DNA from: Puccinia triticina
Lineage: Eukaryota; Basidiomycota; Pucciniomycetes; Pucciniales; Pucciniaceae
NCBI RefSeq assembly: GCF_026914185.1
Contig: NC_070559.1
Coordinates: 2,170,001 to 2,234,000 of the forward strand
Direction of reading: 5' to 3'
Length of the DNA stretch: 64,000 nucleotides
Below, piece after piece: positions 20,506 to 63,343 of this stretch (its first letter is position 1; each line of letters opens with the position of its first letter). A program made the translations under genes and the position numbers. The notes beneath the pieces are model-generated. The model was given only the letters and a program-made list of their open reading frames with translations, ran no database searches and was not told the origin of the DNA.

Positions 20506-22158
20506 TCAGGCGTGGAACAGAAGTGGGGATAGATCGTCTGGGATGCAGAACCAGACCCTATCCGAAACATGGTGCCCGTTTTGACTGCTGTGAGACAGAC
20601 TGTCCGCGCCGTTCTCCTTGGAGACGACCCGTTTCGGTGTCACGTATAGCTGCACCTCCACGAGGAGGGCTTGGATGATCTTCCACTCCTCGTTCACATG
20701 GGTGTCCCGTGACTTGCGAGCCACTAAGACGCTCTCTGTGGTAGTATTGTCGGTCCAAATGACAAAATTCAAACCTCGGACGACCCAGCTGAATTCATGA
20801 AGCATTAGGATGCCGATGCGGATGGCAACGGTTTCTGCCCAGGCGATTGTCCTGTGAGGTTTGGGCCCCTCCCAGCCCTCCTTGAAACGCCGTTGGCACC
20901 AACGGCTACTGACGATAACTCCTATGCTGAAACTCGTGGAGGCGTTGCCCACCCAGCTGATCTCGACTTCTTCGGGAACTGGGACAAGTCTTGTGTGGGT
21001 GAAGTTTGTTAGTGTCTTCAGCCAGAAACGCAGGTCTGTATTCACGTCCAGGGGTAGGGTCCTTGTGGCCCAGAATCGTTTCCACTGATTCATCCAACGG
21101 TACAAACCTCTCAGGTTACACCGGAGCTGTGGGAGGACAAAAGAGACAAGATTCAAACGACCGGACAGCACCTCAACCTCGTTGAACCGGAAACTGGCCT
21201 TCGGGATGAGGAACACCCCTATTTGCGAGATGCGCTCCGCGAGCTTGGCCTCTGGCAGGCGAACCGTGCTATTGGCGCCATTACAAATAAAACCAATGTA
21301 CTTCTGCTCCGCCGCGAAGTCAGAGCATTTGTCTTTGTTCGTCGCAACCCCGAGCGCTAAGGATCGGGAAACCACGTCTGAGATGGTGCACGGGGAATCC
21401 GGATGCTTGACAAAGAGGTTGTCGTCCACCCAGCGGAAGATCTTGACCACCTCAAATTCTGATTCCATGAGCCTCTTCCAGGTGTCAGCGGGTTTGCCAA
21501 AAGACCCGCATCCGGCGACCCCACCAAATGTGATCCGGGTGTCCAGGTACAAGTCTCTTTTTAGATCCTTTACCATCAGGAACGGCCACTGAGCTGGGTC
21601 CGTCGGGATTTGCCAATAGGCCTTTTCCCAGTCAAAAATGGCTAGGTTAAATGGGCCTGAGTTTTTCTTAAAGAAGGCCGCGACCGCCTTGAAGTCGTCC
21701 CAAGTCGTTTTAAACATTTCTTTGTTGACAAAGGAGTTGACGGACGGTGTGTCAGTGTTGTGCCGCGGAAATGATAAATCATTTATTGGTCTCATCTTCC
21801 CGTCCGCGTTGACGAAGGAACCGAGGGGGCTTGACCTGAAGAAAGGAAAAAATTTTGACACCTCGTTGTGTGAAAAAGGGCCAAACATCCGATTCGCCGC
21901 CACCTCTTTGGCAATTGACTTCTGGATTTTTCCTTCTGCATCCTTAGCCAAACTGTGGTTGTCTGGGGTGAACCAGTGCAAATCCCCAATCTTGTGAGAC
22001 GGTATGCCCTGGTTGAAACCACACTCAAAACCTGTCAATATTTCCTCTAGTTCTGGCAACAGACCGGCTTTACCCAAAGCTTTCCTCCATTCTGGCACGT
22101 CCATCTTGCAGGAGACTGTCAAAGGCCAATGCACCCTAATCATTGGCAACACAAGCAA
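20506..22158 (-). CDS. DIRS-1 reverse transcriptase-RNase H
   Basis: A 550-codon minus-strand frame, open throughout; the first ATG is MIRVHWPLTV, a few codons inside. RT landmarks are GKMRPINDLSFPR, IFDWEKAYWQIP and the catalytic box FRWVDDNLFVK. An RNase H domain follows (TIAWAETVAIRIG, then VIWTDNTTTESV). The style matches DIRS-type retroelements, which integrate with a tyrosine recombinase. In the first RNase H position it has WVGNAST where DIRS-2 has WVGDAST, so the catalytic Asp is Asn and RNase H is probably impaired. No recombinase gene follows on the left. Upstream lies its gag. Confidence 0.8.
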   Translation of the reverse strand: MLVLPMIRVHWPLTVSCKMDVPEWRKALGKAGLLPELEEILTGFECGFNQGIPSHKIGDLHWFTPDNHSLAKDAEGKIQKSIAKEVAANRMFGPFSHNEVSKFFPFFRSSPLGSFVNADGKMRPINDLSFPRHNTDTPSVNSFVNKEMFKTTWDDFKAVAAFFKKNSGPFNLAIFDWEKAYWQIPTDPAQWPFLMVKDLKRDLYLDTRITFGGVAGCGSFGKPADTWKRLMESEFEVVKIFRWVDDNLFVKHPDSPCTISDVVSRSLALGVATNKDKCSDFAAEQKYIGFICNGANSTVRLPEAKLAERISQIGVFLIPKASFRFNEVEVLSGRLNLVSFVLPQLRCNLRGLYRWMNQWKRFWATRTLPLDVNTDLRFWLKTLTNFTHTRLVPVPEEVEISWVGNASTSFSIGVIVSSRWCQRRFKEGWEGPKPHRTIAWAETVAIRIGILMLHEFSWVVRGLNFVIWTDNTTTESVLVARKSRDTHVNEEWKIIQALLVEVQLYVTPKRVVSKENGADSLSHSSQNGHHVSDRVWFCIPDDLSPLLFHA

Positions 22159-22293
22159 CGAGCAAAGAGAGAAACAAAGTTAATTGCAACAGTTAGATAT
22201 GTGTAATCTTGCACAACAATTCCGTTCAGCGTTGGCTGGGCACCAACACAAAAAATATGAAGAAGAAAAACTGGACAAAAAAAGGGGGATTCT

Positions 22294-23819
22294 TTAAACA
22301 GGGATGTGACCCTGTGGCCCTAAAAACTTTGTGGTGTTACATCGAGACAAAAGAAAAACAAGGTGAAATGAGGAAATCTCAAAAGACCACCTACTTGGTC
22401 GGATTTCCTGAGCCGCCCTGTGGGTTGTAATTGGGCGCGTTCGCCCCTTGTCAACCGTAACCAGTTGATTTGGCATGACGTTTGTCGACATATCCCTCCA
22501 CAAAGTTGGAACCTTGGTAGCATCGTAAACGTCTCTCCGGATCCCCACCTTCTGACGCCGCGAAGCCGCTTGGATTATAGTTCGGCGCGAGTCTGTTATA
22601 ATCTGAGAGAAATCCTTGTTGCCGCCCTTGAGGCCCAGGTCTCTTGAAGCCCTGGTATTGGACTGCTTCTGAAGCGTATCCAGAGGTGTGCTGGTAATTT
22701 TGAGGCGCTCCGCATACCGGAGTGTGTGGGGCTTTGAAATTGCTAAACACAACTGGTCGACCTTGATTTCGCGCCAAACTCGCGAAGACTCCTATCTCTG
22801 GATCCGCATGAGCATATTCTTGACCCGGAGCGTGATGGTTCTCTTTCCAACCCGCTTCTCCAAAAGTTTGCACAGTAACGTAGAGTTCTTCTATGAGCGT
22901 TTGTTGTTGGATTGATATGTCCTGAATCGCGGAACCTTCTTCTGATGCAATGTGGTGAGCGAACGCGGTCATTCTAATGGCCATGTCGTAACGGAGAGCC
23001 GTCATAAACCTGTAACCGCCCGCCGATATCGCGTCGCAGTTTTCTTTGTGTACCAACAATCTCGCGGCAAAGAACTCCATGCCGTATACGTCTCTCAGCG
23101 TCAAATAGAAGTTGTGATGATTGTTGGTCCAATTTGAATGGGTCTGGGTCCATTCGGACGGATACGCTAAGCCCTTGTAGGCTTTCTCCAATTCGACCGC
23201 TCTAGAATTTTTCATATTTATGTTGGCGTGAATGGCCTCTTCTTCCATTCTGATAACCAATCATTCATCAGACTTGGAAAACTACTACCAATTCCTTGAA
23301 GGACAAAAAATAAAAAACCTCACCATTGTTAAATATATTAAGAGGCAAGGGTGCCCTTAAAGCCTTAATGTTTTCATCAAAAAATGGAGTAAACCCCACA
23401 TCGTGATGGCTAGACACCGCACCTATCGCGTGGACTAGACCCAATTCTTTTTCTGCCTTAACCAATTTTGCGAACATTCTAGGTTCAACTGTCAAGAGCA
23501 CCGGAGTTGCTGAAACTGTCCTTGTGATAGATGGTTTACTTTTGGCTGAATCAGTCAACCCAGATGCGTTCATCAAATATTTGACCAAGATATTGTTGCC
23601 GGCCTGTTGAGCTTCTTTTATCTTTTCCCAGATATGGGCTCTCTCTTGATTGATGTCTTCTGATACTACAACTGCCGGAGGGTGTACATTGGTACTGTTC
23701 AAAATTGCCTCCACGGTAGATTTGGGCAACTTCGGGAGCGATATAATGGCATCTAAATCCAAAACATCCATTGGCCCTGCTGGTGCCAGGAACCGTAACA
23801 AACCAGAATTGCAAAGCAA
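22294..23819 (-). pseudogene. DIRS-1 gag
   Basis: Two minus-strand frames, 23819-23268 and 23260-22451, lie directly upstream of the RT gene in the order gag-RT. The second has a helical capsid-like region (YKGLAYPSEWTQTHSNW) and a Gly/Gln/Asn-rich tail. The junction at 23260-23335 contains GTGAGG and TTATCAG, which look like splice sites, but joining them does not keep the frame, so I treat the break as a frameshift. Another overlapping frame (22752-22294) may be the original C-terminus. Assignment rests on position and composition rather than on a recognised motif. Confidence 0.5.
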
Positions 23820-24172
23820 ATCTCTATGTGTTTTTTGAATAATTTGAATGAGGAACCGGCCTCACTTTTAGTTGGTCTATCACTGCCGTCTGGAGTTAAA
23901 AACTCATTGTCCAAATTGGCCTCTGCCTCACGTGTAAGGGTTCAATCCCTTCACTAGAGCCAACGACAAAGGAGCAGGGACACGGAGCGCGGAGAGAGAC
24001 TTCTAGGACCAAACTCGTGGTTTTGATTGCAACTGATCCAGAGAGAAGTCAGTTCTCTCTGTGAGGGACAAAGAGAGAACAAGAAGAGAGAATGACAAGT
24101 TGAGGGAGTGAGCTTACCTGATCCAGAGAGAAGTCAGTTCTCTACTGAATCAGGGAAGGGGAAGAGCTCAGA
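23820..24172. other. Junction region with duplicated 25-bp hairpin motif
   Basis: CTGATCCAGAGAGAAGTCAG followed by TTCTCT occurs at about 24033 and again at about 24120. Each copy folds on itself (AGAGA...TCTCT). It probably belongs to the 3' end of Gypsy-3. No gene. Confidence 0.4.
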
Positions 24173-26028
24173 CTAAGTACAAGATTGTGACAGGCCTTGG
24201 TAACCTCTTGTGAACTCCAAGGGAGGAGGGGGGTTTACAGTCTCCCCTCCTATAAAAGAGAAGAAAGAGTAAGGGAGAAAGGAATAAGGCAAGGGAATGG
24301 GGGCATAGGGGACAAAAGAGTTAGGTGGGGCACTCCAGAAGTTGGTGGTAGGGGGGGGTGGGAGGAACTGAGGCGGGATTGGCAAGCCGGGAGGCAACGG
24401 ACAAGGGGGGAGACGAGACTTGGGGCCCCTGTGTAGGACTTCAGAAGCTGGCAATGAGGTCAGCCACTTCATCTGGGTCAAAGGACGGTTCCTCGAACTC
24501 ACTACAGAAGTGCGGGGACGCGAGGGTAAGGGCGGGGGTGATGAGAGGAGAGCTGGCGGCGGGGGGACATACTTTACAGCCTCAATTGAGAGTCGGTAGG
24601 CGTCCAGGTCTTCATAGTCCTCCACTGATGAAACATGGAGGTGTGGGGGATAGATGTTGTCCGCGGGGCCGTCCAGCGCGTCCTCCGCAATAGCTTTGTC
24701 TACTAAGCTCATCGCGGCGGCGTTTGCTGTGTCGTATTCTTGGACCGCCGCTACAGTGGCTGCTTGGGTTGGTGGTCGGCCCGCCGGCGGGTTGACAGGC
24801 TTGCCGGGGGCTGGTTGGGCGGGTCCGCGCGCCTTGGGAGCAATGTAATTAGCCGGTCTTGGGCGTGTGATGAAATTGTCCGGGGCATCAACATAGCGTT
24901 TTTTGACTGGCCCCGGGCAGGATCCCGGAATGTTGCCGCAAGCCTTCTTGCAGAAGTGGCATCGTCCTTGCGAGTCAAGGTACGAGTGAATTTGCCAAAT
25001 GAAGTCCTCGCGCGCTGATTGCACATTGGTTGACGGTACCTGCCGGCCAGGATTGGGTTGGAGTGTGGATTGGCTCAGGGCTAGTGCCGGTGCATTTACT
25101 GCCTGCTCGAACGCCCCGTAGACGAACGGAGTGGCATCCAGAAGTTGGCGTTTGGCCACTCGGTGTTGCAATGCCTTGGGGAGTCCATAGACGACGAACT
25201 GAGCTGATCAGCATCCAATAGAGCGGTGACTTCCATGGCGTCGAAGTTGAACAAGCTCTGGAGCGTACGAGCCCTGGTACTGTAGGTCTGGAACAACTCG
25301 GCCGGCCCCATGTCAATTTGCCTGATTTGTTTCTTCAGCTCCGCTCGCCAGTTGAGCGGCAGCGCAAAATCAAACATTCAAGCTTTGAATTCAGACCAAG
25401 AGTTGGTCAGATAACGGGAGGCTTTGTTCCTGTAGAACGATTTCAAGTTTGTTTTGGCAATGAGGTTGCCAACAATTCAAACCTTGTCCAAGGAAACGGT
25501 GACGGCTTTGGTCTTGAAAAATATCTCAACCCCGTGGATCCAGGTGAGGAACAACTCGGCAACAAGAAACGGACCAGCAAACAAGGGCCCATCTGAAGTT
25601 CAGAATCGTTGTAGATCTACACCCTCAGTCGCTGGTCGGCCCGGGTGGTTGGAGGGCTTGGCTTTTGCATGCATACCAACGATGATCTCCTCGAGTCGGT
25701 CGGTTTTTGCATGCATGCCAACTATGATCTTCTTGAGTTGGTTGGTGCGGGCCGCGTTGGCCTTGATAGCGGCTTGGAACGCTTGTAGATCAGCTCGTCG
25801 GTCAGCAGCGGCTTGGCGGCGATCCTCGTTAGCCTGCTCAACTGAGGCGTGCTGAAGCTTCAGTACCCGCTTGAACCAATCTTTTGCGGTGGTCAGATCA
25901 GCGGCCTCGGTTGTTCGGGTCGACTTGGTGGAATGTTCTGGGCCCCCAGCGGTAGGGGTTGTATCCGACATCTCTATTGGTTGTTGGGGGTTGGGGCGGC
26001 TGGGAGATGTGGTGAAGAGCTGGGCCAA
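24173..26028 (-). pseudogene. Gypsy-3 gag, without pol
   Basis: The N-terminal frame 26028-25600 encodes a coiled-coil region with a 14-residue repeat (IIVGMHAK twice). After frameshifts, 25377-25096 gives the capsid-type segment PLNWRAELKKQI and MGPAELFQTYSTRARTLQSLF. The frame 25171-24173 gives LPKALQHRV-like sequence, a cysteine knuckle (GRCHFCKKACGNIPGSCP) and a long proline-rich tail. This is the layout of Ty3/Gypsy gag in rust fungi. No protease, RT or integrase follows: DIRS-1 gag begins 350 bp to the left. Either the element is truncated or it is a gag-only (TR-GAG type) retroelement. Confidence 0.7.
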
Positions 26029-52226: not shown

Positions 52227-52984
52227 CAAGACAGTGTATGGCTTGTGAGAATGCTGCCATGGCACTGGTCAAGTTGTTAGTATCGGGCCTTCGAGTAGTG
52301 TGTAGAAGTGGAGATAACATACAAGAGCATAAGAGCAGATGGGACCAAACTGTCGGCGCCACTCAGCACGAAAAACTTAGGACTCCAAGTTCACCGTGCG
52401 AAATCCTTGAAGAGAGTGAAGCGACCGAAGAAGACTCCTGTTTGAGCTCTTCTTTGGCTGATCGAGTTCGCCATCAGCTTCATCCGAGTCGATCACTGTT
52501 GACAAAGCCAAAGCCCTCGTGGTTCTCCTGTTGGCACCGTTTGACCAGGAGTCGATCCGAGCCAAGTCATATCTGCACTGATCTCCTCATCTGGGTCACC
52601 ATTTTGCGATGGTCTAGCCCCGGTGAGACGGTGGTCATCGAGAGTAACTGTGTTCGGAAACCTCGACTTCTTTTGGGGTTGAGCTTGAGTTTGAGGTGTA
52701 CAGCTGGTCCAATCGGGCGGGTCGGAGTATTGCAGCTAACTTAACACAAGTCCTTGAAGGTACCCGAAGCAAAGAATGCCGCAAGAGTACCGGGGTCCAT
52801 GAGCATAGGCGAAACCGAAACTGTTCTACAACAGACCAGGAAGGCAGCTGTAGAAGAAAAGATCCGAGCGGCGTGTTTTAGACTAGGAGCGAACGTGTGA
52901 TATATAGAGGCGCGTCATCTCGGACAGACCTCCATCCTCACTTCCCACTCCGACAGTTTCTCGTGTTTCTGCGCTCCAGATTCG
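52227..52984. other. Unrecognised stretch between Copia-2 and DIRS-2
   Basis: Open plus-strand frame 52238-52744 of unclear meaning. No motif recognised. Confidence 0.3.
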
Positions 52985-53979
52985 ATATTTCTCTGACTCA
53001 CAGGAAATATTGGAAGGACGTGATGGAAGACAATTTTGATCTAATTAAGGTGTTTCGATGGGTTGATGATAACCTTTTTGTGAAAGGAGAACATTCCACG
53101 ACTGACATGGACGATATTGTGGCTTATTCAACACGATTGGGGGTCCAAACCAACAAGGAGAAATGTTCCGCCTTCTCCGAAGAACAGAAATTTATCGGAT
53201 TTATTTGGAATGGAAAGTACAAAACAGTTCGACTACCTGACGCGAAGCTTTTGAAAAGGGTCAATCAAGTTATGATTTTTCTAATCGAAGTACGGATTTT
53301 CTCTTACAACGAAGTGGAAATACTAGCGGGACGTTTAAATCACGTGGCCTACATATTACCTCAGCTGAAAGCCTATTTGAACAGCACATACAAATGGTTG
53401 GCGAACTGGCATTTTCATTACCCAAAAAGACCGGCCCCAGTGGAGGTACTTGAAGATCTGGAAATCTGGTATAATACACTTAAGTCTTTCGAACATACTA
53501 GGTTAATCCCGACAAGAGAACCGGTCAACATTGATTGGGTCGGAGATGCTAGCACTAGCTTTGGTATTGGTATCAAGATTGGTCGGTTGTTGAAATTGTT
53601 ACGTACCGGTTCCGAAGATAGAAAATACAATATCGCCTGGCTAGAGACGGTTGCTATCAGGTTGGGCATACTAATGCTGATTCATGAAAAACGTATTCAA
53701 CAAGGGTCAAATCTGATAGTCTGGACAGACAACAACACAACCCTCGCCGTCATTGAAAACAAGAAATCCGGGGATGTGGCGGTGAATAACGAGTGGAAGG
53801 TGATACAAGATCTGTTGTTGTTACACCAGATTGATCTAACAGCGAGAAGAGTAAAATCTGGCGATAACATGGCGGACGCCTTGTCACGAGGGATCAGGGG
53901 TCCACACAAAGAGAAAGATAGGGTCCTTTTTGCTATTCCCGATGATTTGGCAACTTTCTTCTACCACCCTTCCTCATAA
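52985..53979 (+). pseudogene. DIRS-2 RT-RNase H, 5'-truncated
   Basis: The coding part homologous to DIRS-1 starts at YWKDVMEDNFDLIK, just before the catalytic box FRWVDDNLFVK. The RT fingers and first palm motifs are missing. RNase H is complete with DWVGDAST, NIAWLETVAIRLG and IVWTDNNTTLAV. The segment upstream of about 52985 in this frame does not resemble RT. A TTCTCTGACTCACAG just before the homology start could be a splice acceptor, but it may simply mark the truncation. The recombinase gene follows 200 bp downstream, the DIRS order. Confidence 0.8.
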
Positions 53980-54180
53980 ATACTTGCCCGTTCCTGCCTT
54001 CAATGTTTTCATTGTTTATATTTCACACCTCATCCTAGAATTTCCTTTGTGGCGCTGCCCCCCTTTTTTAGTCTTTTTCTACTACACACCACCAAGAAAC
54101 ACGTCTTCCGCTTACGCTCAACCCTTTCCAAACACGCAAATTGCGGGTCAACCCTTGTGTTTATTCCGAACACTGCTCCA

Positions 54181-55267
54181 ATGGAGGACCCAAGGTGGAA
54201 ATCTAAACTAAGCTGCTTTCTGATGGACGGGTCAGTCCCGAAGGAAGTAAGGCCGATAAACAAACACATTTTATCAGCCAGGGCGATGTCTACCTTGATT
54301 AGCTACAACTGCGCCGTGAAAAAATTCCTGGTGTTCAAGAAACAGACCTCCAACAAAGAAACAGACCTCCAACAAAGATTTTGTCCTCCCAATCTCCGGT
54401 GACGACATTGAAGAATTCTGTTTTTGGGCCGGCCGCAACCTACACACAAACTGCCGCCATAAGATTAGCTCAAATTCGGTAAAAAAGTATTTGTTTGGCA
54501 TTAAAGCCTGGCACGGTTTCCACAAGAAACCATTTCCTTGGGTCACCGGGAGGAGGATAAAATTGATCCTTTTAGCGTCCAGGAAGATCGATGCGACCTT
54601 GCCGCCGAAAGGACCGAAACCCGCGATAATGTTGAAGCATTTAGTCTGGATCGTGAACAAACTCTCCGTTGGTTCCGAAGAGGATAAGGCCATCTCGGAC
54701 CTGGCGATAGTAGCCTTTTGGGGGATGGCACGGTTGGGGGAACTCACATACGGGATCCATACCGGTTACCTCGATATCCAACATTCCATCTTAACGAGCG
54801 ACGTTCGACAGGTGCAAACAGACGTCGGCCGCAACATGTACTTGACAGTTAGGAACGCTAAAACGGCTAAACCTGGCGTACCACAGAAACTGGTTTTACA
54901 CAGTTTGAAGAACATGCTATTTCCGGTTGAAGCGATTGAACGCCGACTCCTGGAGGCGTTGGGCGCTACCACTTCTTTATTTGGATACTATCTTGACGGG
55001 GTGAGATACCATTTACAACGTGCAAGGTTGATCAGTCGGATTCAACACATACTCAAAGAAGGCCACTTCGAGGGTCTGATGGGCCATTCTTTCAGGGTGG
55101 GTGGAGCGTCATTGCGACACGCGTTAGGCGTTTCGACGGAGGACATTTGCAACCTAGGCCGCTGGAAGTCTTCTTGCTATTGTTTATACATTAGGAAGTA
55201 CACTGAAGTCGAAGTTGAGGACACCAAGTCCTTAGTTAGACACCTAGGAGAGATGTGGAAAGCTTGA
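54181..55267 (+). pseudogene. DIRS-2 tyrosine recombinase
   Basis: The N-terminal part (MEDPRWKSKLS, then SYNCAVKKFLVF) and the C-terminal part (54402-55267) are one protein split by a 19-bp tandem duplication at 54340-54377. Catalytic landmarks are the first Arg in GMARLGELTY, HSFRVGGASLRHALG (H-x-x-R), GRWKSS and the nucleophile Tyr in CLYIRKY. The enzyme would integrate circular element DNA in place of an integrase. Without the duplication the frame is open throughout. Confidence 0.85.
54340..54377 (+). repeat. 19-bp tandem duplication breaking the recombinase
   Basis: AAACAGACCTCCAACAAAG occurs twice head to tail (54340-54358 and 54359-54377). The extra 19 bp shifts the frame by one. Confidence 0.95.
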
Positions 55268-56173: not shown

Positions 56174-56789
56174 TGTTAAGCTAGGTATTGCAGGGGATCA
56201 AGGAATCCATTCTGACCTAGACGCCGCGGGGATGTCTTTGGGTCTCCTTTTTCCGGCTGCGGGAGATAGTGCTGTGCATCACCCTTCATGCGAGAGTTCC
56301 AGCAGCTCTGGCTTCTTACCGCTCTGGACCCGCATCGCGCCGGCCTAACAGATATCTTAGCTCTGCTAACTCATCTTAACTGCTCACTTTTTGGGAGTCC
56401 CGAAAGCCAGGGAGTGGATTCCCAAGACTCTTGAGTGTGGGTCGGGGGGAGGTTATGTCCCCGATCCTCTGTACTAATCTCAAGTAATTCTCCTCTTGTC
56501 ATGAGTCCTCCCGGAAGGAAGACTCGACATGGAGAAGCCTCCGAGGGAGGAGAGAGCAGAGGATCAGATCCTCCCGGAACAGAAAGACACCCGAGGGTGT
56601 GAGGGCAAAGGCGCCAGACCCCTTTCTCCAGACTCGGAGAGTTTGGAGCCCGGCAACTGTGCCCTATCTGCAATTCCGACTGAGTTTGACGATTAGCGTC
56701 CTCAGATGAGGTTCTCGTAGTGAGGTGGGATATTCATTTCAATAGGTGTGACATAGTAGGATCGTCGATTACTGGGTCCAGCATTTGTA
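56174..56789. other. GC-rich non-coding stretch
   Basis: No supported gene. Several inverted GGAGG/CCTCC blocks at 56500-56600. Confidence 0.4.
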
Positions 56790-57830
56790 AAGTTCCCGGA
56801 GAATCGTAACTTTGTCTTCCTCTTCTTCCTTGGAATAAGGGCAGATGTAGAGTTTGAAGCAGTCTGAGGTCCATCGACCGGATTGGCAGATAACGGACTA
56901 CCCATGGAGTGTAGAAAGGAAGTCCCTCCGACCCTGAACGAGTGTCCTGAGATCCCGGAGCAGCCGTTGTTGTTCCAAAACTGGGATAGGGCTCGACAGG
57001 CCATTGGTTTGGTTATGTGGATCCTAGTTTCTCCTTCCCAGTAACCGAAGAGTGAGGCGTCTCTCCTTTGGGCATTTGTGATTCTCCTCTCGAGGGCGAG
57101 TATGGGGCAGAGCATGGTCTTCATGTTCGCAAGGTTGATCGTTTGGACTTCCCCTGGACTAGCAGTTTTAGCTCCTCTGACTTGGAGGATGGCTCTTTTT
57201 GAGGTTCCTGTTTCCCAAAACTCTACATCTCCGACTAAGACTGACGCCGATTGGCAGAGTGGTCCTACCCTGTCGTTGTAAGTTAGTTCACCTAAGCGTG
57301 CTACTCCCCAGAAAGCCACTAAACATAAGTCTAGGAGGGCCTTTTGGAATTCCGTGCCGTTAATCCACGCATTAGTGATCATCACCAATTGTCTGATCAT
57401 CACTGCCTTCTTCTTGGGTTTGGATTTGGATTCTGCATCTATGTAGGCTGACGACCTGAGGAAGGTAGCAACTTTGCACTTGGAGGCGTAGGGATATTTT
57501 GCGTTGTGCATCATGTGCCAAATTTGCAGGCCTGAAATGTATTTGGCTAGGGTTACCGAAGAGACTTTTGTGAGGGCCGGGGGACTCAAAAGTTTGCCCT
57601 GCCCAGCAACAGAACGCGTATATGTCTTGCTCGGATAGGGGAAGTGAAAAGGGAGTGCGCTCGTTGCTCTCTGCAAATTTGACATACTTCTTCACGGCTG
57701 AGTTGTAGCATTTGAGGGTATTCCATTTATAGCCCAGTAGAAAGTGTTTGTCTTGGGTAGATAACTTTTGAGAGAATGAGCCTCTCTTGGCTAGGGCAGT
57801 TAAACTAGATAAGGTGTCTGCTGTTGCCAT
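56790..57830 (-). pseudogene. Second tyrosine recombinase (DIRS- or Crypton-like)
   Basis: ATG 57830 opens MATADTLSSL and the DNA-binding N-terminal domain (NTLKCYNSAVKKYVKFAE). A frameshift at about 57600 leads into the catalytic domain: Arg in GVARLGELTY, HSFRVGGTSFLHSMG (H-x-x-R). After a second frameshift near 56910, GRWTSDCFKLYICPY carries the nucleophile Tyr. It is related to but clearly different from the DIRS-2 recombinase. No RT lies beside it, so it is either the remains of another DIRS element or a recombinase-only Crypton-type transposon. Confidence 0.75.
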
Positions 57831-58800: not shown

Positions 58801-58914
58801 TTAGGGCTGTTAAGTTGTCTGTTAGTCTGCTACCATGATGTATCACCACAGTATGGAGGGCTGTCAGATCGACCCATGAGCACTACCAACCAACCACCCA
58901 GCTGGCAGCCACAA

Positions 58915-59000
58915 GCGTCTGTAGCCTAGTTGGTAAAGGCAGCACTCTAGTATGTGTCTCAGCATAGCTGAGGTCGTGAGTTCGACTCTCACCAGACACA
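58915..59000 (+). tRNA. tRNA-like sequence in left LTR
   Basis: Acceptor GCGTCTG/CAGACAC (one mismatch), T8, A9, D-arm GCCTAGTTGGTAAAGGC, variable arm CTCAGC-ATA-GCTGAG, T-arm GTGAG-TTCGACT-CTCAC joined directly to the acceptor. A box TAGCCTAGTTGG, B box GAGTTCGACTC. The anticodon arm is imperfect, so it may not be a working tRNA. Confidence 0.45.
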
Positions 59001-59022
59001 TCTTCATTTTACAGTCTCTACA

Positions 59023-59036
59023 GGTTATGAGCCCAG
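59023..59036 (+). promoter_or_regulatory. Primer-binding site complementary to initiator tRNA anticodon arm
   Basis: GGTTATGAGCCCAG is the complement of CTGGGCTCATAACC, the anticodon stem-loop of eukaryotic initiator tRNA-Met (CAT). Drosophila copia primes the same way with a half-tRNA. Confidence 0.65.
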
Positions 59037-59336
59037 AGCTACCTGAGCGCTACTCGCTTACAATAGAGACTTGATGAATTTGTGAATGCTTACTTGTAAG
59101 ACCACGCAAACCCCTATAAGCCTACATCTAGATCACGGGTTCAATCCCTACGCTGATCATCTTTCCTGGGTCTCATTCCCACTCTCTCTTGGGGTCAATC
59201 CCCACTTCCCATCATGTAGCAAGGGGGGGTGTTGAGTTGTCTGTTAGTCTGCTACCATGATGTATCACCACAGTATGGAGGGCTGTCGGATCAACCCATG
59301 AGCACTACCAACCAACCACCCAGCTGGCAGCCACAA

Positions 59337-59422
59337 GTGTCTGTAGCCTAGTTGGTAAAGGCAGCACTCTAGTATGTGTCTCAGCATAGCTGAGGTCGTG
59401 AGTTCGACTCTCACCAGACACA
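59337..59422 (+). tRNA. tRNA-like sequence in right LTR
   Basis: Same as the left copy but with a perfect 7-bp acceptor stem (GTGTCTG/CAGACAC). Invariant positions T8, A14, G18, G19, T54, T55, C56 and A58 are all present. The long variable arm is class II (Leu/Ser-like). The anticodon loop fits poorly: CTAGTA would give AGT with T33 and A37, but one loop base is missing. Isotype not assigned. Confidence 0.5.
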
Positions 59423-59425
59423 TCT

Positions 59426-62400
59426 TCATTTTACAGTCTCTACAGAGGTTATGAGCCCAGTATATTGGGTCAACAAAGACACATTGAAGACCAGATGAAG
59501 CTTTGGATAATCCTTAGAAAGATCCAACATTACCACATTACGGCCCACCATTTTAACCACCTTAAAAGGACCGATAAACCTATAATCAAGCTTTGCATTA
59601 ATGCGCCGCGACTGAATAAATTTGCGCAGAAGCAAAACCTCGTCCCCTTCTTGATAAACCGGAGTTTCTTTCTTACCCTTATTGTAATACTCAGCCTGTT
59701 TGACCCTCGCTTGATGCAAACACTCCATTGCCGTTTCTTGCGTTACCTGCAAGTCTACCAAAAATTTGTCCAAATTTTTCCTTCCTGTATTCTCAGTTAG
59801 TACATTAAACCTTGGATGGAAACCATAAGTAAAGAAAAATGGGGAAATTTTTGTGCTCGCCGAGTCCAAATTATTTATAGAGAACTCCGCCATCTCTAAG
59901 CATCTGTGCCAGTCGTCCTGATAATATGAACAAAAGTGTCGCAGATAGTCTTCTACTACCTGGTTCATTCGCTCGGTTTGCCCATCTGTTTGTGGATGAT
60001 AAGCCGTCGACAAGGCCAGAAGTATACTCAAAGACTTTAACAAAGCCTTCCAAAAACCGCTTACGAACGTAGAACCCCGGTCCAAAACAATTTTATCGGG
60101 AAGACCGTGTAAACGAAAAATATTTTTCCTAAACAAATCAGCTAAAACCGCCGATGACGACGCCTCCTTACAAGGAATGAAGTGCGTCAGCTTGCTCAGA
60201 AGGTCAATCACAACTAAAATAGAGTCGAACCCCCCCAAAGTTGGTAACTTAACAATCATATCCATCCCAATCACGCTCCAAGGCTTTGGATTAGCAATTA
60301 TGGAAACCAACTTTCCGTCTGCCGCTTGCCGCCAAGCCTTCACCCGCTGACAAGAATCGCAGCTGTTGACGTACTTGATAACAGAATCCTTCAACCCTGG
60401 CCAAGAAAAGGTTCGCGTCAACGTTGACAACGTCCTAGCGATGCCCGGGTGGCCTACAGTAGGTGAATCATGATAAAGAGAAATCAATCGCGTTCTCAAC
60501 GCCGCCGGAACTAAAATTCTATCCCGATGCCAATAAACATTGTTAGCAAAGCGCAAAAATCTCCCCGTCTTCTCAGCCTCTGTGTAGTTTTTACCAAAGT
60601 AATCCAACAAATCCTTTGAAGGCCGCTGGAAAAACAAATCGTGAGAGGTAAAAGGGGATAAGTCATCCGTAGACGACTCCTCGCAAGCCACCATCCGTCC
60701 GGAAATTAGATTAGCGTCAGTACTCCTGATTCTCTCTTCAAAGTAATCTTCTCGACGGGTCGGCCCGTCCGCCGGGTTCTTATATCCTAAAATATGATAA
60801 ATGAGCATATTAAAATTGTCTAGAAACAAAGCCCACCTCGCCTGTTTAGGCGATAAGTACTTAGCTGTCTTGAAGTAAAGCAAGTTCGAATGATCTGAAA
60901 ACATTTTTACTGGATTCTCCGTACCCATCAACCACGCCCGCCACTCTTGGCAAGCAGAAACAATCGCCAGGAGCTCCAAGTCAAACACCTTCCATGATCG
61001 CTCTCTCTCTGTCAGCTTCCTTGAAAAGTAACTGACAGGAAGAACATCCCCTGCCTCGTTCGGCTGACTTAAAACTGCCGCTATAGCATAGCCTGAGCTG
61101 TCGACATGTACAATTCTATCCTGTGCGAAGTTAAAATGCAAAAGAAGTGGTTCATTAACAAACAAACGCTTCAAAGACTCGAATGCATGAACTGCATCCT
61201 CCGAATTCAACATAGTCGAATCACTATACTTCTCCTGTGTCAAAGTTGTTAAAGGCCCCGCCACCGTAGAAAACCGCGGTATGAAGCGCCGATAAAAATT
61301 TGTAAAGCCTAAAAACTTACGCAACCCTCTCACCGTAGCCGGAAAAGGCCACTGCTCAATTGTCAACAGCTTATTCCTATTCATTCTTAAACCCTTATCC
61401 GTAATGTCAAACCCCAAAAATGTCACCTTAGAGCAAAAGAATTCACACTTCGCCAACAAAGCTTTAAGAGAAAATTCCCGCAGCTTTCGCAAAATGCTAT
61501 CTAAATCCTTCAAATGCTCGTCCCTAGTTTTGGAAAAAATTAAAATATCGTCAATATAGACGAAACAACATACATCCAAAAACTCTCGCAACACGTGTTG
61601 AATGAAGTGTTGAAAAGTGGCAGGAGCATTAGCCAACCCAAACGGCATAACTTGATATTTGTACAAACCCCAGGGTGTTTGGAAAGCGGTTTTCCATTCG
61701 TCACCTTCCGCGACACGAAGTAGATTGAAAGCTGCCTTCAAGTCTATTTTAGACAAAAACTTACAGCCCTGCAGATTATTAAGAAGGTGAGCGATAACCG
61801 GTAAAGGATAAGAATCCCTTACCGTCATGTTATTCAACAACCTATAATCAACGCAAGGTCGGTTAGCCTTTCCCGGAACCTTCACATAAAATATGGGAGC
61901 AGCAGCCGGGGAAGAAGAGACCCTAATGAAACCCTTAGCTAAGTTATCATCCACGTATGTCTTGAGCTCATCCCGCTCCGGCTTACTCAGATTATACATT
62001 TTCCCAAAAGGCGGCTCGGCTCCATCCTTCAGATTAATCTTGCAATCAAATTGACCCCTGTGCGGTGGCAAGTTTGCCAAAGACTCAGTTACAAAGACGT
62101 CAGAAAATTTCTCCGTAAGACTTCGCAATTCTCCGCAAGACAAATCATTAATTTCCTGTATACACTCATACATTACGATATCACCACTAGATCCTCCTAC
62201 AAAAGAACCAGAGTCTCTTAACCATGAGTTTTCTAAGATAACATTTGCCAAAGCTAACTTGGTTAAATACAGTACAACATGAGAGGAAAGAAAGGAAACG
62301 GAAACCGTGGGGATAATAACATATCCTTTTGCATAGGAACTGATTTCTCCCGAGGACGCCAGAGAACCGTTGAAAGACTTGCAACGCAAGCCCACCGCCA

Positions 62401-63343
62401 TCGGGAATATTTCCATTTTAACCTTATTAGCGTAATCAGAATCAATGAACAAAGCCGAAGCACCAGAATCAACCAACACATTTACATCAGCCTTGTTACT
62501 ATTATTTATCAGCAAACTACCACGAAAAAACGGACGATTATCCGGTCGAGGAGTTTTCACAACTAAATATGATTGCTTACAGTCTGAGGCATTCATCTTT
62601 TCCGCCAAACAAGCGTTAAAGAAAACCTCCCCAGCCGACATATCCTCCATATTAACCATTTCTGCCGACAACACCGGATCAGCGTCATCACCGCGAGCGC
62701 TTGCCGCTCTTTTCTTGAAGGGTAAACCGTCAACTTCTGCCAAAGATTGCCGTTTCTTGCCTTTGTCTTCTTGGTGGACTGGCGAAGTCGTACCACTCCG
62801 ACTCGCATGTGCTCGAACAGCCGACGAATTTGAAGGACGTCTGACCCCTTCCGGAGACGATTTAAGGTCTCCTCGCTTCTTCGCCTTGCTCCTTCGCGTT
62901 GACCCCCCCCATTCCTTCCATAACGACAACATATCAGACAGATTCATCTTCATTTCGGCGCCAAGAGTACACCCCTGCTTGAGGTAATGAGAATTGTCGT
63001 AAGTACCCCCACACCGAATACAAATATTACGATCCACGCAAGCTTGACGGAAGTCCTTGTAGTTGAAATCTGCCTCTTTTAACAAAGCCGAAACCTCATC
63101 GACATCCATAGGATCTCCATCTGGCAGCTTAACACGCTGAGGATACAAAGTTGTCAGTTGAGGATTGACCCGAGCCCGATTTTCTCCCGGAGGATGATTT
63201 CGATGATCCTGACCAGCGTGAGAAGGACCCTGTTTTTGATTGGAACGTGGGTCGAGGATCTTACTGACACCGGAGACATTCTTAGCCACGACCTCAGCGA
63301 TAGCTTGACGAGAATCCAAATCAACTGTTTCATCCCATCGTCC
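59426..63343 (-). CDS. Gypsy-2 pol polyprotein (protease, RT, RNase H, integrase)
   Basis: About 1300 codons without a stop. In order from the right: zinc knuckle (CIRCGGTYDNSHYLKQGC), protease NVLVDSGASALFID, RT with NRPCVDYRLLNNMTVRDSYP and CFVYIDDILIFS, RNase H (RIVHVDSSGYAIAAVL, then KMFSDHSNLLYF), integrase zinc finger (HPGIARTL, CDSCQRVK), integrase core (VIGMDMIVKLP, LDRGSTFVSGFW, YHPQTDGQTERMNQ) and GPF domain (FIGPFKVVKMVG). All catalytic residues are present. It is in frame with gag through one TGA at 63344-63346. Its last residues (after QYTG) are read from the inserted TRIM, so the chromodomain is lost. Confidence 0.93.
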   Translation of the reverse strand, partial: GRWDETVDLDSRQAIAEVVAKNVSGVSKILDPRSNQKQGPSHAGQDHRNHPPGENRARVNPQLTTLYPQRVKLPDGDPMDVDEVSALLKEADFNYKDFRQACVDRNICIRCGGTYDNSHYLKQGCTLGAEMKMNLSDMLSLWKEWGGSTRRSKAKKRGDLKSSPEGVRRPSNSSAVRAHASRSGTTSPVHQEDKGKKRQSLAEVDGLPFKKRAASARGDDADPVLSAEMVNMEDMSAGEVFFNACLAEKMNASDCKQSYLVVKTPRPDNRPFFRGSLLINNSNKADVNVLVDSGASALFIDSDYANKVKMEIFPMAVGLRCKSFNGSLASSGEISSYAKGYVIIPTVSVSFLSSHVVLYLTKLALANVILENSWLRDSGSFVGGSSGDIVMYECIQEINDLSCGELRSLTEKFSDVFVTESLANLPPHRGQFDCKINLKDGAEPPFGKMYNLSKPERDELKTYVDDNLAKGFIRVSSSPAAAPIFYVKVPGKANRPCVDYRLLNNMTVRDSYPLPVIAHLLNNLQGCKFLSKIDLKAAFNLLRVAEGDEWKTAFQTPWGLYKYQVMPFGLANAPATFQHFIQHVLREFLDVCCFVYIDDILIFSKTRDEHLKDLDSILRKLREFSLKALLAKCEFFCSKVTFLGFDITDKGLRMNRNKLLTIEQWPFPATVRGLRKFLGFTNFYRRFIPRFSTVAGPLTTLTQEKYSDSTMLNSEDAVHAFESLKRLFVNEPLLLHFNFAQDRIVHVDSSGYAIAAVLSQPNEAGDVLPVSYFSRKLTERERSWKVFDLELLAIVSACQEWRAWLMGTENPVKMFSDHSNLLYFKTAKYLSPKQARWALFLDNFNMLIYHILGYKNPADGPTRREDYFEERIRSTDANLISGRMVACEESSTDDLSPFTSHDLFFQRPSKDLLDYFGKNYTEAEKTGRFLRFANNVYWHRDRILVPAALRTRLISLYHDSPTVGHPGIARTLSTLTRTFSWPGLKDSVIKYVNSCDSCQRVKAWRQAADGKLVSIIANPKPWSVIGMDMIVKLPTLGGFDSILVVIDLLSKLTHFIPCKEASSSAVLADLFRKNIFRLHGLPDKIVLDRGSTFVSGFWKALLKSLSILLALSTAYHPQTDGQTERMNQVVEDYLRHFCSYYQDDWHRCLEMAEFSINNLDSASTKISPFFFTYGFHPRFNVLTENTGRKNLDKFLVDLQVTQETAMECLHQARVKQAEYYNKGKKETPVYQEGDEVLLLRKFIQSRRINAKLDYRFIGPFKVVKMVGRNVVMLDLSKDYPKLHLVFNVSLLTQYTGLITSVETVK

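What the first reader, a model, noticed from the sequence alone, without database searches (positions are those of the whole stretch)
58808..59444. TRIM-like retroelement whose LTRs contain a tRNA-like pol III unit
Seen: two 215-bp direct repeats around 207 bp, TG...CA ends, a primer-binding site complementary to the initiator-tRNA anticodon arm, a polypurine tract before the right repeat, and in each repeat an 86-nt cloverleaf-like sequence with A and B boxes. In the right repeat the acceptor stem and nearly all invariant tertiary bases are intact. Known: plant Cassandra TRIMs carry 5S rRNA sequence in the LTR. Inference: this is an analogous system with a tRNA, which could supply a pol III promoter, tRNA-processing signals or structure to the LTR. 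The two tRNA-like copies being better conserved than needed for a passive passenger is suggestive but not proof.
Basis: partly seen in the sequence, partly recalled or inferred. Interest (0 to 1): 0.86.

Follow-up and report, generated by a model that had tools for sequence, protein, structure and literature searches.

The report
Mini-retrotransposon with tRNA-like ends
The window holds one abnormal copy of a short retrotransposon without proteins, in what looks like a rust fungus, whose repeated ends contain a tRNA-like sequence; this kind was described in 2024 as Helenus, and what is new here are natural hybrids with the larger retrotransposon that probably moves it.

Summary
[quoted passage not shown] Of 43 complete copies read, 40 have exact 5-bp target duplications. 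The kind is published: Helenus (Kojima 2024, PMC10886601). This is most likely its family LTR-1_PTrit; sequences could not be compared.

The 'intact acceptor stem' is a minority state (5 of 77 LTRs; 72 have C·A there), and the tRNA-like part is not better conserved after insertion. The window copy has no target duplication, lost 3 bp of its gypsy target and ends in an extra GA plus PBS, so it probably entered without normal integrase action.

New: two elements with a Copia-type LTR at the left, the whole TRIM interior and a TRIM LTR at the right, each flanked by matching 5-bp duplications. Best explained by strand transfer between a co-packaged Copia and the TRIM through the shared initiator-tRNA PBS. 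A side lead: DNA transposons sit exactly in box A of such tRNA-like segments (66 genome matches, 2 for the control).

The parts
58808..59022 (+). left LTR, 215 nt
59230..59444 (+). right LTR, 215 nt, 4 differences from the left
58915..59000 (+). tRNA-like segment of left LTR (box A 58922-58933, box B-like 58978-58988)
59337..59422 (+). tRNA-like segment of right LTR (box A 59344-59355, box B-like 59400-59410)
59007..59010 (+). TTTT in left LTR, possible pol III terminator (inference); the same at 59429-59432 in the right LTR
   Evidence: not unusual by shuffling
59023..59036 (+). primer-binding site for the spliced initiator-tRNA anticodon arm
59023..59229 (+). interior, 207 nt, no long reading frame listed inside it
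59218..59229 (+). polypurine tract AGCAAGGGGGGG, the same 12-mer as in a Copia element of this genome
59445..59460 (+). extra GA + 14-nt PBS sequence after the right LTR, absent from gypsy copies at this place
59446..63319 (-). gypsy-type polyprotein frame in which the element sits (its first 15 bases here are the extra PBS stretch)

Best explanation
It is a Helenus element: a terminal-repeat retrotransposon in miniature (TRIM) with a tRNA-derived segment in its LTR, moved in trans by a Copia retrotransposon of the same genome. Shown by sequence: paired LTRs, PBS for the spliced initiator tRNA, polypurine tract shared with a Copia, 5-bp target duplications, and two hybrids with Copia-type LTRs. 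Inferred: pol III starts at the tRNA-like boxes of the left LTR, reads past the TTTT there and stops at the TTTT of the right LTR; Copia particles package the RNA, prime it with half of the initiator tRNA and integrate the cDNA. The window copy is an abnormal insertion of such a cDNA, without duplication and with a piece of primer-derived sequence kept at its right end (inference).
For: LTR pair and tRNA hits. Exact 5-bp duplications in 40 of 43 complete copies, 0.15% in random pairing. PBS 14 of 14 to the spliced arm of L100. Copia reverse transcriptase (RVT_2, 8.2e-42) in one open frame of 452 aa that ends before the same 12-nt polypurine tract and an LTR beginning TGTTGAG. Hybrids L090 and L091: Copia-type LTR, whole TRIM interior, TRIM LTR, outer duplications CAATT and GGAAT. 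Kojima 2024 describes the same anatomy.
Against: No RNA data. The single TTTT per unit is what shuffled sequence gives, and a strict box B is in only 41 of 77 LTRs. No constraint on the tRNA-like part after insertion. No autonomous Copia with the whole TRIM leader was found in this genome; the Copia LTRs of the hybrids are only 72-74% alike to those attached to Copia genes. The window copy itself has no duplication.
Confidence: 0.88

Rival explanations
1. A tRNA-derived SINE that occurs in tandem, not an LTR element.
For: tRNA-like head with box A and box B; a second family with another tRNA-like segment exists in the genome.
Against: Complete copies have two LTRs around an interior with PBS and polypurine tract and 5-bp duplications outside both LTRs, 40 of 43.
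Confidence: 0.02
2. The tRNA-like segment is a passenger and pol II transcribes the element from elsewhere in the LTR.
For: No slower change of the tRNA-like part after insertion; C.A mismatch in the acceptor stem of 72 of 77 LTRs and an 8-nt anticodon loop; TTTT in the left LTR would stop part of pol III transcripts.
Against: Box A in 75 of 77 and relaxed box B in 70 of 77 LTRs; a second family in the genome keeps the same layout with another tRNA-like segment; Kojima reports box A and box B conservation across Helenus families. Young copies give the test little power.
Confidence: 0.25
3. The hybrids L090 and L091 are not strand-transfer products but a TRIM that entered a Copia LTR region, or a post-insertion exchange.
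For: L032 shows a Copia LTR directly abutting a complete TRIM without duplication, so adjacency can arise otherwise. A Copia with a TRIM-like leader, as published for P. graminis, would let a crossover lie anywhere in the leader; L084 has 77 nt of such a leader behind a Copia-type LTR.
Against: In L090 and L091 the matching 5 bp lie outside both ends of the whole hybrid, no left TRIM LTR remains, and the homology to the TRIM begins at the PBS in both.
Confidence: 0.2

Closest known systems
Helenus, family LTR-1_PTrit of Puccinia triticina (Kojima 2024, PMC10886601)
   Same: tRNA-like LTR whose tRNA is predicted as Thr-AGT (AGT lies in the anticodon loop here), interior of about 210 nt, PBS for the anticodon arm of the initiator tRNA, 5-bp duplications, interior shared with a Copia, several hundred LTRs.
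   Different: Sequences could not be compared. The paper, in the parts read, reports no hybrids, no abnormal ends and no transposons in box A. It reports 144 interiors; here one search had 145 first-look candidates, of which 40 were scored.
Helenus-4_PTrit (tRNA-Ala-TGC)
   Same: The second family found here has a tRNA-Ala-TGC-like segment in its LTR.
   Different: It is not the element of the window; identity not tested.
Cassandra TRIM of plants
   Same: Small RNA gene in the LTR of a TRIM (as cited).
   Different: 5S rRNA instead of tRNA; its pol III transcription is shown, that of Helenus is not.
Copia elements primed by an internal piece of initiator tRNA (Ty5, Drosophila Copia; as cited)
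   Same: PBS complementary to the anticodon arm.
   Different: They code for their own proteins; this element does not.

Membership tests
Helenus (TRIM with tRNA-like LTR) | two LTRs, total under 1000 bp, no proteins for movement | tested here: met
   637 nt, interior 207 nt without a listed frame of 200 aa or more
Helenus (TRIM with tRNA-like LTR) | tRNA-derived sequence in the LTR | tested here: met
   Rfam RF00005 42.9 and 48.0 bits
Helenus (TRIM with tRNA-like LTR) | PBS and polypurine tract at the ends of the interior; in most fungal families the PBS fits a tRNA anticodon loop | tested here: met
   feature as given
Helenus (TRIM with tRNA-like LTR) | 5-bp target duplications (fungal families) | tested here: met
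   40 of 43 complete copies; not met by the window copy itself
Helenus family LTR-1_PTrit | sequence identity with the published family in P. triticina | not testable with these tools
   sequences are in supplements and Repbase, not held; host genome unnamed
TRIMp3 (pol III transcribed TRIM) | transcription by pol III from the LTR | not testable with these tools
   box A in 75 of 77, relaxed box B in 70 of 77 LTRs; no RNA data
tRNA-derived SINE | tRNA head followed by a variable tail, no paired LTRs | tested here: not met
   paired LTRs and 5-bp duplications

The most novel reading that the evidence does not exclude
L090 and L091 are fossils of Copia plus-strand strong-stop DNA that jumped, through the shared 14-nt initiator-tRNA PBS, onto the minus strand of a co-packaged Helenus cDNA. 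They would be direct evidence of what mobilises Helenus, and would show that the integrase accepts one Copia end and one Helenus end. In addition the tRNA-like LTRs serve as landing pads for DNA transposons specific for box A.
Probability: 0.62. Interest if true: 0.58.

Novelty: already known. Interest (0 to 1): 0.4.

Why it matters
The element kind is published, so the finding itself is no discovery. It does bear on a point left open in that paper: which autonomous element moves Helenus in the same genome. Two independent hybrids tie it physically to a Copia clan, and they suggest that a shared primer tRNA, without similar LTRs, is enough for exchange inside one particle. If DNA transposons really aim at box A, hundreds of tRNA-like LTRs would be safe sites for them.

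Tried and rejected
Autonomous Copia with the whole TRIM leader: patterns negated beside the 3' end of the leader returned a TRIM variant (L039) and a truncated TRIM (L083). The pattern negated beside the PBS listed 8 sites, of which 4 were read: L085 and L087 are TRIMs, L086 is a Copia-type LTR with another leader, L084 a Copia-type LTR with 77 nt of TRIM leader. Of the 32 sites six were read: L080-L082 with other leaders, L086, and the two hybrids L090 and L091. L096 and L097 gave no Copia 5' end. L102 gave part of a Copia LTR, an imperfect PBS, another leader and a Copia-type gag.

One integration for the compound L032/L098: not shown, the outer flanks do not match. A single TTTT per unit as evidence of pol III: rejected, 80% of dinucleotide shuffles of the 422-nt unit have at most one. 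Selection on the tRNA-like part: not supported. A gypsy target that naturally holds the PBS 14-mer: rejected, L093-L095 lack it. For one search complete copies with LTRs in both orientations (L022, L040), copies with a truncated part, and repeated places (L001 = L020) were not counted.

Literature: searches (28 papers, 25 listed; 4; 1) for the element; (1 listed each) for hybrids, neither a TRIM/Copia hybrid by title and abstract start; others (1; 6) for DNA transposons in tRNA genes, where two listed papers describe Dada. Only open-licence PubMed Central papers were searched. Of PMC10886601 I read parts 1-4 of 6, the section of legends and tables, and passages; of PMC8358450, PMC10627818, PMC8869645 and PMC3706591 passages only; the other papers only as listings.

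Full report
What is there. Two direct repeats of 215 nt, 58808-59022 and 59230-59444, differ at 4 sites. They begin with TGTT and end with CTCTACA. The interior of 207 nt begins with GGTTATGAGCCCAG and ends with AGCAAGGGGGGG. Each repeat holds an 86-nt segment that both ARAGORN and the Rfam tRNA model accept. The element lies in a gypsy-type polyprotein that reads the other way.

Copies in the genome. The window's assembly has 122.8 Mb in 18 contigs. BLAST of the 637 nt gave 42 matches, with 40 of 566 candidates scored. The LTR-end+PBS 21-mer has 422 matches at up to 3 mismatches, control 2. I had 79 loci by then: 57 match this family (one place twice, L001 and L020), and 22 (23 sites) carry a second family with the same 21-mer. 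In the two loci of it tested, L012 and L034, ARAGORN reads tRNA-Ala TGC in three of four LTRs; its LTR is 130 nt and the element 355 nt. The loci are the best BLAST hits and the first places in contig order, so not a random sample. Of 43 unique complete copies of the first family, 40 have an exact 5-bp duplication, 0.15% in random pairing; the misses are L001 (the window), L032 and L047, the last by one base. In the second family it is 18 of 21 measured units, with 2 sites not measurable; two of the three misses are the halves of a tandem array, L043, whose outer flanks match. L058 and L066 are tandem arrays of the first family.

Primer. L100 holds an initiator-tRNA-like gene: arm CTGGGCTCATAA, an 8-nt intron, then CCCAG; Rfam accepts it, ARAGORN does not call it. 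The PBS complements the spliced arm, 14 of 14, and not the gene. Kojima reports the same for most fungal Helenus families.

The tRNA-like segment. In the 77 of 80 LTRs that are 215 nt long, all arms are nearly always paired except the second acceptor pair: C.A in 72, T-A in 5. The right repeat of the window is one of the five; the change is C to T at a CpG, so I read its perfect stem as a late change. The anticodon arm has 4 pairs and an 8-nt loop, followed by a 6-pair extra arm. Box A is present in 75 of 77, a strict box B in 41, a relaxed one in 70. Over 40 LTR pairs (mean divergence 1.57%) the tRNA-like part has 66 differences in 86 nt and the rest 69 in 129 nt, so there is no sign of constraint after insertion. 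Variants shared in both LTRs of two or more elements are 3 in the tRNA-like part and 6 in the rest, too few to test older selection.

The window copy is abnormal. Two gypsy copies, L093 and L094, show the empty site ...GAGTTAGGGC TTA TATAT.... In the window TTA is missing, there is no duplication, and the right LTR is followed by GA and the 14-nt PBS sequence. My reading (inference) is a cDNA whose right end kept sequence from the primer and that was joined to a break by end joining. A tandem copy cut short is the alternative; neither accounts for the GA.

Who moves it. L098 and L032 are neighbouring pieces of one open frame of 452 aa. Its first part is a Copia-type reverse transcriptase (RVT_2); the second I read as RNase H from recalled motifs, and Pfam gave no match for it. 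It is followed by the same polypurine 12-mer and an LTR that begins TGTTGAG and ends CTCATCA. L101 shows the same tract and LTR (98.9% alike over 349 nt) behind a frame 96% alike, and L102, about 4 kb upstream, shows part of such an LTR, an imperfect PBS and a Copia-type gag. At least 150 related frames exist (150 of 1834 candidates scored). In L090 and L091 an LTR 72-74% alike to these stands at the left, then the complete TRIM interior (98% and 92%), then a complete TRIM LTR (98% and 93%). The outer flanks match: CAATT in L090, GGAAT in L091. The two Copia-type LTRs are 69% alike over 190 nt, so I count two events. Normal reverse transcription of one RNA gives two equal LTRs (established knowledge). 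Transfer of Copia plus-strand strong-stop DNA to the TRIM minus strand at the shared PBS would give exactly this structure (inference). A crossover elsewhere in a shared leader is not excluded: Kojima reports a P. graminis Copia with 198 nt of such a leader, and L084 has a Copia-type LTR followed by 77 nt of it at 95%.

How it probably works. Pol III binds box A and box B in the left LTR, starts near LTR position 100-108, passes TTTT at 200-203 and stops at the TTTT of the right LTR; R would be about 100 nt and U5 12 nt. This is inference. TTTTAC is in the tail of 75 of 77 LTRs and at the matching place in the second family, but one TTTT per unit is what shuffling gives. Copia proteins then package, prime, copy and integrate it.

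Known or new. Helenus covers the anatomy, and LTR-1_PTrit fits in anticodon, interior length, primer, duplication length and Copia-like interior. I could not compare sequences or name the host. 18 chromosomes fit Puccinia; P. triticina Pt64 has 18 but about 147 Mb per haplotype, more than here. The hybrids are not in the parts of that paper that I read, and searches listed no paper on such hybrids.

Box A transposons. In L057, L067 and L075 a foreign sequence with ends like CACTAC[AG]GGC or CACCGCCAGC begins right after LTR position 121, within box A; in L057 both ends are present and CTA is duplicated. L070 and L046 show the same in the second family. The pattern TRGCYYA + CACYRCNRGC has 66 genome matches against 2 for the reversed control. 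Six further sites read for about 60 nt upstream all have the junction, but whether each lies in a tRNA-like sequence was not settled. In the fetched loci, which were picked for Helenus, 7 of 9 such ends adjoin box A or D-loop sequence by my reading, 2 do not.

Noticed in passing
L057, L067, L075 (LTR position 121); L070 and L046 (second family); L030 begins at LTR position 121; 66 genome sites: DNA transposons with CACTA-like ends sit exactly in box A (TAGCYYA) of tRNA-like sequences, with 3-bp duplication in L057: 66 matches against 2 for the control. Possibly tRNA-targeting transposons other than Dada; the share of all copies that lie in box A is not known.
   Followed up: partly
L012 and 21 further loci: A second, 355-nt Helenus-like family with 130-nt LTRs and a tRNA-Ala-TGC-like segment shares the last 20 nt of the LTR (80%) and the PBS with the family of the window.
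   Followed up: yes
L040 948-1993: An inverted LTR joined to interior position 15 (just behind the PBS), then LTR-interior-LTR, flanked as a whole by AATAG on both sides: an abnormal reverse-transcription product that was integrated.
   Followed up: partly
L022 1093-2062 and L098 1938-2214: Head-to-head TRIM parts without matching flanks; in L098 an inverted TRIM end is fused to a Copia reverse transcriptase gene piece.
   Followed up: partly
L029 and L049: In both, the right LTR stops after the same 12 nt (TGTTGAGTTGTC); cause unknown.
   Followed up: no
window 59137-59148 and 59191-59203: Two T-arm-like motifs in the interior (GGGTTCAATCCC, GGGGTCAATCCCC), perhaps relics of another tRNA-like sequence; Rfam gave no hit there at its cut-off.
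   Followed up: no
window 52897-55267, 56702-57685, 20506-25171: Frames that recall reverse transcriptase and tyrosine-recombinase parts of DIRS/Ngaro-type elements; recalled resemblance only, no family search made.
   Followed up: no
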